A stretch of 64,000 nucleotides of DNA, taken from NCBI RefSeq assembly GCF_000188155.2, contig NZ_KE124774.1:1866356-1930355 (forward strand). The letters are read 5' to 3'. Both the position numbers and the translations under genes were made by a program. This stretch comes from Methylocystis sp. ATCC 49242 (lineage in GTDB: Bacteria; Pseudomonadota; Alphaproteobacteria; Rhizobiales; Beijerinckiaceae). Under the pieces are notes generated by a model. The model had not been told where the DNA came from. It did no database searches and was given only the letters and a program-made list of their open reading frames with translations. Below are positions 25,464 through 26,891 of the stretch, piece after piece (position 1 is the first letter of the stretch; every line of letters starts with the position of its first letter).

Positions 25464-25470
25464 GGATGTA

Positions 25471-25484
25471 TATGGACCCCGCCC
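25471..25484 (+). repeat. IS1111-type subterminal inverted repeat (3' side of transposase)
   Basis: TATGGACCCCGCCC; its perfect complement lies at 26837-26850. It sits within about 8 bases of the break point of the IS3 OrfB fragment. Confidence 0.75.
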
Positions 25485-25754
25485 GATTGCAACGGCTTTG
25501 ACAGTTCCGACTTTCGGTCACAACTGCTGACGTATATCCGGCTTCATGATGCGGCCGAAAAAGTTCTTGCCGCGAGCCTCGATGGATTTTCGCGCGCTTC
25601 CACCTCAATGCCCCCAAGGCATTGGCTCTCGCCATGCCGGTCCACACATCAGGTTCGGGAATCGACGGAGTGACCGTTTCGCCATCACTGCCAATCGTTG
25701 CAATTGCTGGTGGGAATCTCGTTGGTTGTCTGTTTCCCGGATGCTTAGCTGCGG
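25485..25754 (-). ncRNA. Candidate seekRNA/guide RNA region of the IS1111-type element
   Basis: A 270-base non-coding stretch between the transposase stop and the subterminal repeat, where IS1111-group elements encode their guide (seek) RNA. A hairpin CAATGCC-CCCAA-GGCATTG is seen at 25606-25624, and a weaker competing pairing of GGCAT with ATGCC at 25618-25639. No protein frame is supported. The RNA limits and strand are inferred from family knowledge, not seen. Confidence 0.4.
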
Positions 25755-26786
25755 TTAGGCCGAGCTGACGGTTAGACGCTGATCGTAGCTCATGCCGCTG
25801 GCGAGCAAGCTCCATGCGATCCGCGCGTTCTTGTTGGCGAGCGCGACGGCGACGACATTTGGATGATGGCGTTCGCGCGCTTTGAGCAGCCAAAGGCTTC
25901 TCGGATCCTGCTTCCCTCGTATCCGGCCCAAGGCGGCGCGTGCGCCGTGGATAAGCAAGGTACGAAGATATCGGTCGCCGCGTTTGCTGATGCCGAGCAG
26001 CCGCGATCGGCCGCCACTCGATCGTTGTCTCGGGACAAGTCCGATCCATGCCGCGAACTGCCGTCCATTCTTGAAGCATTTTGCATCGCCAGCCGCTGCG
26101 ACCAGCGCTGTCGCAGTAATAGGTCCAATTCCTTCGACCATGCCGAGGCGCTGACATGCTGCGCTTGTTCGATACAATTCCCGGATTTTGCGATCGTAAA
26201 TTGCGACCCGCCTATCAAGGTCGATCAATTCCTCCCGCAATTCGCCGATCAACTCCCGAACAATGCTGTTCAGACCGTTGCTTTCCTCGTCGACGATCCG
26301 CGGCAAAGCGCGCCGAAGATTGCCGATGGTCTGCGCAATAACGACGCCGTGCTCGCCGAGTAGGCCGCGGATCTGGTTCACAAGTCTAACCCTATTGGCG
26401 ACTAGACGACTGCGAATCCGATGAATAGCCTGGATCGCCAGCTGTTCGGCGGATTTGACCGGAACGAACCGCATGTTCGGACGGCCGACTGCTTCACAGA
26501 TCGCCTCGGCGTCATTCCGATCATTCTTGTTGGATTTTACGTATGGCGTGACGAACTGCGGGCTGATCAATCGAACGTCATGCCCAAGCTCGGAGAACGT
26601 CTTGGCCCAATAATGCGCGCCGTTCGAGGCTTCCATTCCAACAATGCAGGGCGGAAGATTCGCGAAGAAGAGCGCAACGGCCGGGCGGCGTAAAGTCTTA
26701 CGCAAAACGACTTTGCCGCGTTCGTCAACACCGTGAAGATGGAAAACATATTTCGCGAGATCGAGGCCGATACGGACGATGTGCAT
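25755..26786 (-). CDS. IS110-superfamily transposase (IS1111 type)
   Basis: 343 residues from ATG 26786, chosen because AGGAG lies 8 bases before it and [12 protein letters not shown] is the family's normal start. The RuvC-like DEDD domain has Asp9 (GLDLAK), Glu52 (VGMEAS), Asp89 and Asp92 ([11 protein letters not shown]). The C-terminal Transposase_20 domain has [47 protein letters not shown] with the conserved serine region. Intact; expected to use an RNA guide for target choice, as shown for relatives. Confidence 0.92.
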
Positions 26787-26836
26787 GGTCGTCTCCTGCT
26801 CTGCGAGTGACAGTTCGACATCCCAGCCTAGGCCAA

Positions 26837-26850
26837 GGGCGGGGTCCATA
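26837..26850 (-). repeat. IS1111-type subterminal inverted repeat (5' side of transposase)
   Basis: Minus-strand TATGGACCCCGCCC, 51 bases upstream of the transposase start; partner of 25471-25484. Confidence 0.75.
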
Positions 26851-26891
26851 CCATTGCCCCCGTTTTGGCAAGGTGATTCTTCGGCGACATT

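What the first reader, a model, noticed from the sequence alone, without database searches (positions are those of the whole stretch)
25465..26856. IS1111-type element with perfect inverted subterminal repeats and a candidate guide RNA
Seen: a 14-bp repeat TATGGACCCCGCCC at 25471-25484 and, inverted, at 26837-26850; an intact DEDD transposase between; a 270-base non-coding stretch 3' of it with a 7-bp hairpin at 25606-25624. Known: IS1111-group elements encode a guide (seek) RNA in this 3' region, which specifies target and donor. Inference: this element carries an undescribed guide RNA whose target loop should match the junction in the IS3 OrfB gene at about 25464, with the other flank beyond 26856.
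Basis: partly seen in the sequence, partly recalled or inferred. Interest (0 to 1): 0.7.

Follow-up and report, generated by a model that had tools for sequence, protein, structure and literature searches.

The report
RNA-guided jumping element targeting another
This is a bacterial jumping element that appears to encode a short guide RNA, and the guide fits the end of a different kind of jumping element, so that it lands inside its neighbour rather than in ordinary genes.

Summary
Window 25469-26856 (minus strand) is a complete 1388-bp IS1111-type element: exact subterminal repeats, 7-bp and 3-bp extensions, intact DEDD transposase, 3' non-coding region. A guide RNA is supported: two stretches of the non-coding region fit the two flanks and change with the target across relatives (0 of 20000 permutations reach the observed score in each of four tests). 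They face each other across one conserved internal loop.

The element splits the right end of a second IS1111-type element ("host IS", transposase 27152-28168), inside its inverted repeat: GGGGG^CATCCAC. The IS3 OrfB remnant only lies beyond. All 10 host copies fetched from plasmids have an uninterrupted right end. Of 33 alphaproteobacterial relatives with 500 nt or more upstream, 28 lie just downstream of a host-type transposase on the same strand; 0 of 19 gammaproteobacterial relatives do.

The mechanism is known (seekRNA/bridge RNA, 2024), and so are ends of mobile elements as IS1111 targets (IS4321/IS5075). Apparently new: one IS1111 lineage aimed at another's end. RNA, movement and the effect on the host IS were not tested.

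The parts
25469..26856 (-). complete IS1111-type element (ISx), 1388 bp
   Evidence: ends shared by copies and relatives
25472..25484 (-). right subterminal repeat GGGCGGGGTCCAT (transposase sense)
25469..25471 (-). right extension ATA, 3 bp
26837..26849 (-). left subterminal repeat ATGGACCCCGCCC (transposase sense)
26850..26856 (-). left extension CAATGGT, 7 bp
25755..26786 (-). DEDD transposase, 343 aa
   Evidence: PF01548, PF02371, NF033542; motif [10 protein letters not shown]
25574..25695 (-). region of the conserved guide RNA fold
25640..25651 (-). guide T, TGATGTGTGGAC, complementary to the top strand of the right half-target
25607..25615 (-). guide B, AATGCCCCC on the plus strand (GGGGGCATT in the RNA), same sequence as the left half-target GGGGG plus CA
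26857..28246 (-). host IS, main part: left end, transposase, non-coding region, inner part of its right end
   Evidence: the outer limit 28246 is inferred from a 7-bp left extension
27152..28168 (-). host IS transposase, 338 aa (frame open to 28216)
25459..25468 (-). outer part of the host IS right end, CATCCACACA (right half-target)
25219..25467 (-). fragment of an IS3 OrfB-like gene (rve domain), beyond the host IS; its first few codons overlap the host end

Best explanation
ISx is an IS1111-group insertion sequence whose 3' non-coding region gives a guide RNA of the seekRNA kind. The RNA has one internal loop. Its 5' strand (UGAUGUGUGGAC) pairs with the top strand of the right half-target (CRTCCACACATG); its 3' strand (GGGGGCAUU) pairs with the bottom strand of the left half-target (GGGGG). 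Together they specify GGGGG^CRTCCACACATG, the right end of a second family of IS1111 elements. ISx inserts there in one orientation and splits the host's inverted repeat. Joining the ISx ends in an excised circle would create a promoter (TTGCAA-16-TACAAT) for transposase and guide RNA. Shown here by sequence: ends, target, empty sites, guide-target co-variation, conserved fold, similar elements in dissimilar hosts. Inferred: transcription, circle formation, insertion chemistry, and that the host IS loses mobility.
For: Ends and 7/3 extensions. Guides at fixed places, T 5' of B, the order reported for IS1111 seekRNAs. Own targets score above permuted ones: gamma T 6.96 vs 4.74 and B 7.07 vs 5.68 (n=14); alpha T 8.39 vs 8.07 and B 6.43 vs 5.80 (n=28); 0/20000 each; a fixed-register alpha T test on 36 elements gave 3/20000. 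Fold: 95.6% of cells paired vs 92.7% shuffled, covariation score 0.179 vs 0.116, 0/500 each. Host-type transposase on the same strand ending 125-392 nt upstream in 28 of 33 alpha elements, 0 of 19 gamma. Uninterrupted host right ends in 10 of 10 plasmid copies fetched. 11 of 15 element pairs at least 93% identical have hosts under 56% identical. Junction promoter motif in 43 of 55 predicted circles and in none of the unjoined ends.
Against: The window RNA alone folds no better than shuffles (z -0.17). In fixed register the window guide T pairs at 9 of 12 right-flank positions. 'Pairs with change on both sides' does not exceed shuffles (90/500), and the fold was derived from 12 of the 31 sequences it was counted on. 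Relatives are not independent, so permutation counts are not strict probabilities. Five of 33 alpha elements have no recognised host transposase upstream. Six alpha right flanks fit poorly in fixed register, shifted by a base or disrupted (L044, L047, L078, L087, L101, L103). Two copies in the own genome have CATCCACCCCATCAG or CGTCCACCCCATCAG on the right, closer to the host left end. No RNA or transposition data.
Confidence: 0.87

Rival explanations
1. Composite element: the host IS and ISx move together as one unit with two transposases, so their neighbourhood is inherited rather than targeted.
For: The pair is constant in order and orientation; in the own genome three host copies with different left flanks all carry ISx at the same point; element and host distances correlate weakly (r 0.217, 17 of 9999; de-duplicated r 0.199, 358 of 9999).
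Against: 11 of 15 pairs of elements at least 93% identical sit in hosts under 56% identical; host copies without ISx exist; gamma relatives have no host but matching guides.
Confidence: 0.05
2. The IS3 OrfB gene is the target.
For: OrfB-like sequence follows the right flank in the window.
Against: Copies elsewhere have other sequence there and share only the host-end bases; the left flank is not IS3 but the host IS.
Confidence: 0.02
3. The transposase protein alone reads the target, and the RNA-like co-variation is a by-product of relatedness.
For: Alpha targets are all similar, and related sequences can inflate permutation tests.
Against: Gamma relatives with diverse targets have matching changes at both guide places; guides sit in a conserved fold; experiments on other IS1111 elements show the RNA is needed.
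Confidence: 0.05

Closest known systems
IS1111 family with seekRNA: ISEc11, ISKpn4, ISPa11, ISPst6 (PMC11187229; abstract and sections 4, 6-9, 13, 14 seen)
   Same: DEDD transposase of about 340 aa with GL-P----SG, subterminal repeats, 7/3 extensions, 3' non-coding region, T guide 5' of B guide, promoter at the circle junction (here only predicted), one orientation
   Different: target is the right end of another IS1111-type element; those target a short linear site, attC sites or REP sequences
IS4321 and IS5075 (Partridge and Hall 2003; only the title seen, in a reference list; paper not held)
   Same: IS1111 elements that target terminal inverted repeats of other mobile elements
   Different: their targets are Tn21-family transposons, not another IS1111-type element; anything beyond the title is recalled
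IS621 / IS110 bridge RNA (PMC11208160, passages seen)
   Same: RNA loop that pairs with left and right half-target
   Different: IS110 group: RNA in the left end, guide order reversed, donor loop described; no donor loop was sought or identified here

Membership tests
IS1111 family | subterminal inverted repeats, usually 11-13 bp, perfect or near-perfect | tested here: met
   13 bp, exact
IS1111 family | extensions of 7 bp (left) and 3 bp (right) | tested here: met
   CAATGGT and ATA; CAATGG(T/G) and a 3-bp right extension recur in relatives
IS1111 family | DEDD transposase of 330-350 aa with GL-P----S(T)G | tested here: met
   343 aa, [11 protein letters not shown]9/E52/D89/D92 conserved; which acidic residues are catalytic is recalled
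IS1111 family | longer non-coding region downstream of the transposase gene | tested here: met
   270 nt (25485-25754) between gene and right repeat
IS1111 family | guide RNA with matches to both target strands, top-strand complement first | tested here: met
   sequence, order and co-variation; the RNA itself was not observed
IS1111 family | insertion in one orientation, no target duplication | tested here: met
   all own-genome ends read have the same orientation to the half-targets; flanks join to an intact host end without extra bases. The count looked only for same-strand hosts upstream
IS1111 family | circular intermediate with a junction promoter | not testable with these tools
   only the predicted junction motif, 43 of 55 elements
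IS1111 family | transposase co-purifies with the RNA | not testable with these tools
   needs an experiment

The most novel reading that the evidence does not exclude
A lineage of RNA-guided insertion sequences has specialised as hyperparasites of another RNA-guided IS lineage across Alphaproteobacteria. Its guide follows the evolving right end of the host elements; each insertion cuts the host's inverted repeat and immobilises it, so ISx acts as a guided brake on its host; in this genome all four host right ends of this type that could be found are occupied. The host in turn appears aimed at IS3-type ends, giving a three-level nest of guided insertions.
Probability: 0.42. Interest if true: 0.65.

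Novelty: new member of a known kind. Interest (0 to 1): 0.48.

Why it matters
Natural series of IS1111 guides with many different targets are few. This clade offers one: guides and targets vary together in alpha- and gammaproteobacterial relatives, so pairing rules, tolerated mismatches and register can be read from nature. It is also a testable case of one selfish element using an RNA guide against another, which bears on how insertion sequences limit each other and on retargeting these recombinases.

Tried and rejected
A single-sequence fold was uninformative (z -0.17). Rfam gave nothing relevant: one match below its gathering score, a plant-virus family, at 28177-28222 (+) in the host IS. 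A protein-distance comparison (r -0.03 for 25 pairs, -0.10 for 21) was blurred by broken frames and was redone on DNA, which gave a weak positive correlation. A first count of the TTGC motif used too short a spacer (9 of 36) and was redone (31 of 36 alpha, 1 of 19 gamma). A search of the own genome for an empty host right end with up to 3 mismatches found none.

Rows dropped before counts: of the 80 genome-contig loci, 5 partial ones (L146, L147, L150-L152) were never entered. Of 82 loci entered (75 plus 7 plasmid loci), 21 lacked a recognisable end. L111, L130, L137, L145 and L148 were set aside as degenerate, and L077 and L091 as duplicates, leaving 55 with the window (36 alpha, 19 gamma). 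L107 and L121 had no anchor for the guide test; identical targets were then collapsed to 14 gamma and 28 alpha. Three alpha elements with under 500 nt upstream were left out of the host count. Eroded hosts (L080, L141, L154) were left out of the distance comparison, which used 25 pairs. Alignment A2 used 12 and A3 31 of 36 alpha elements. Of 567 plasmid records with host-IS matches, 10 were fetched.

Full report
Observation. The 14-bp repeat is exact at both stated places, and the frame between encodes an IS110/IS1111-type DEDD transposase. Comparing copies in the same genome (three full copies, one apparently split by another insertion, two partial) and relatives fixes the ends: left extension CAATGGT, repeat ATGGACCCCGCCC, right repeat GGGCGGGGTCCAT, right extension ATA, thus 25469-26856, 1388 bp. 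Extensions of 7 and 3 bp are those given for IS1111 elements.

Target. In transposase sense, each left end read in the own genome is preceded by GGGGG, and the right flanks begin CRTCCA (relatives similar, with GGAGC, GGGGC and other variants). The left flank in the window is the 3' end of a second IS1111-type element, the host IS, whose transposase lies at 27152-28168 on the same strand. Its left end reads TGAACTGATGGGGTGGATGCC in many copies with unrelated sequence outside. Ten host copies fetched from plasmids of nine genera all have an uninterrupted right end...CTTGC-GGGGG^CATCCACACACG or one to three bases off; four of the 30 loci of the window's genus matched a right-end pattern uninterrupted too (L160, L172, L181, L182). 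So ISx lies inside the host's right inverted repeat (GTGGATGCCCCC / GGGGGCATCCAC), and the IS3 OrfB fragment is what lies beyond the host IS. In the own genome four sites match the host's inner right end and all four adjoin ISx; no uninterrupted right end was found within three mismatches. A further full copy, L003, has a different left flank with the same kind of ending.

Generality. Of 36 distinct alphaproteobacterial elements (window included), 33 have at least 500 nt upstream. In 28 of these a host-type transposase on the same strand ends 125-392 nt before the element (24 of 28 between 249 and 309); in 5 none was recognised (L043, L083, L086, L104, L113). Of 8 upstream frames of these five searched in Pfam none is IS110-type, although their half-targets look alike. 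None of 19 gammaproteobacterial relatives has such a neighbour. With the window host alone as query, downstream hits within 1200 nt were seen in two alpha loci (L044, probably a tandem partial copy; L047, opposite strand) and in the degenerate gamma locus L137. TTGC lies 5-14 nt before the junction in 31 of 36 alpha and 1 of 19 gamma elements.

Guide RNA. The non-coding region holds TGATGTGTGGAC (25640-25651), complementary to the right half-target, and GGGGGCATT (25607-25615), matching the left half-target plus the next two or three bases. In gamma relatives with other targets the same places carry sequences that fit those targets (L125: TTTTGGTCG for CGACCAAAG; L156: TGGACCG for CGGTCCA; L116: CATCACCG for CATCAC^CG). 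Permutation of targets: gamma T 6.96 vs 4.74, B 7.07 vs 5.68; alpha T 8.39 vs 8.07, B 6.43 vs 5.80; 0 of 20000 each. In a stricter fixed register the alpha T test gave 3 of 20000. Relatedness makes these numbers rough, but the gamma targets are diverse. Poor fits: L115 on the T side (5 of 8), L125 on the B side (5 of 8), and six alpha right flanks. L080 and L083 show a compensating change in the alpha group (target CACAGATG, guide ATCTGTGG).

Fold. The consensus of 12 relatives has the two guides on opposite strands of one internal loop between two helices, with only their outermost bases in the flanking helix. Counted on 31 sequences (29 distinct), 95.6% of cells pair (shuffled 92.7%), 34 cells change on both sides (10.8), covariation score 0.179 (0.116), 0 of 500 each; pairs with change on both sides 6 vs 4.6 (90 of 500), further pair types 21 vs 20.1 (170 of 500); slid structures pair at 35-44%. 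All 12 sequences that gave the structure are among the 31, and the window sequence alone folds no better than shuffles. Rfam 15 has no relevant match.

Independence. Among 25 element-host pairs, 11 of the 15 pairs of elements at least 93% identical have hosts under 56% identical, so similar elements entered dissimilar hosts (recombination between element copies could mimic some of this). Distances still correlate weakly (r 0.217, 17 of 9999; de-duplicated r 0.199, 358 of 9999), as expected if both circulate in the same lineages. A composite element is unlikely.

Mechanism. Joining right and left ends gives TTGCAA-16-TACAAT in the window, and TTGnnn-(15-18)-TACAAT in 43 of 55 elements; the unjoined ends with their flanks never show it. 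This fits the promoter reported at IS1111 circle junctions. Circle, transcription and insertion are inferred from that work. That the host IS is immobilised follows from its split repeat and is untested.

Novelty. The kind is known: IS1111 guide RNAs (PMC11187229, abstract and sections 4, 6-9, 13 and 14 read) and bridge RNAs (PMC11208160, passages read). Ends of mobile elements as IS1111 targets are known from the title of Partridge and Hall 2003. In searches, of which I saw listings, I met no report of an IS1111 lineage aimed at another IS1111 lineage's right end; they cover open-licence papers only, and ISfinder could not be consulted.

Source. The genus is probably Methylocystis: coordinates in genome G010 contig 2 match plasmid NZ_CP034087.1 of Methylocystis rosea.

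Noticed in passing
window 26985-27026 (-), host IS non-coding region: The host IS may have its own guides: TGAACCGATG (in 9 of 10 plasmid hosts, one base off in the tenth) and, in the window, CCGGTCCCGGGGC; a narrow pattern for the latter found nothing in the 10 plasmid hosts. They fit an IS3-type end TGAAC^CGCCCCGGGTTTG, whose inner part, varying at one base, follows the right end in 5 of 10 plasmid hosts; the whole site occurs once in the own genome (G000:C4:85881). This suggests a three-level nest.
   Followed up: partly
L071/L072 (own genome C6:1028807-1028885) and L075: Short palindromic MITE-like sequences with both ends TGAACTGATGGGGTGGATGCC (L075 a 41-bp version with one changed base), apparently two inverted host-IS left ends.
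   Followed up: no
L005 and L006 (own genome): Two ISx copies have right flanks CATCCACCCCATCAGTTCA and CGTCCACCCCATCAGTTCA, resembling the inverted host left end rather than its right end; off-target insertion or later recombination.
   Followed up: no
window 28252-28300: The 49 bases left of the host IS occur eleven more times in the genome at 98-100% identity; in the seven copies read they continue without the IS.
   Followed up: no
L047 and L081, non-coding region: Fourteen bases containing part of guide B are duplicated in tandem, possibly a step in changing a guide.
   Followed up: no
window 23291-24829 (-): A transposase with Mu-transpos_C_2 and rve domains (IstA of IS21 type, recalled resemblance) lies beyond the IS3 remnant, so the region is an IS cluster.
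   Followed up: no
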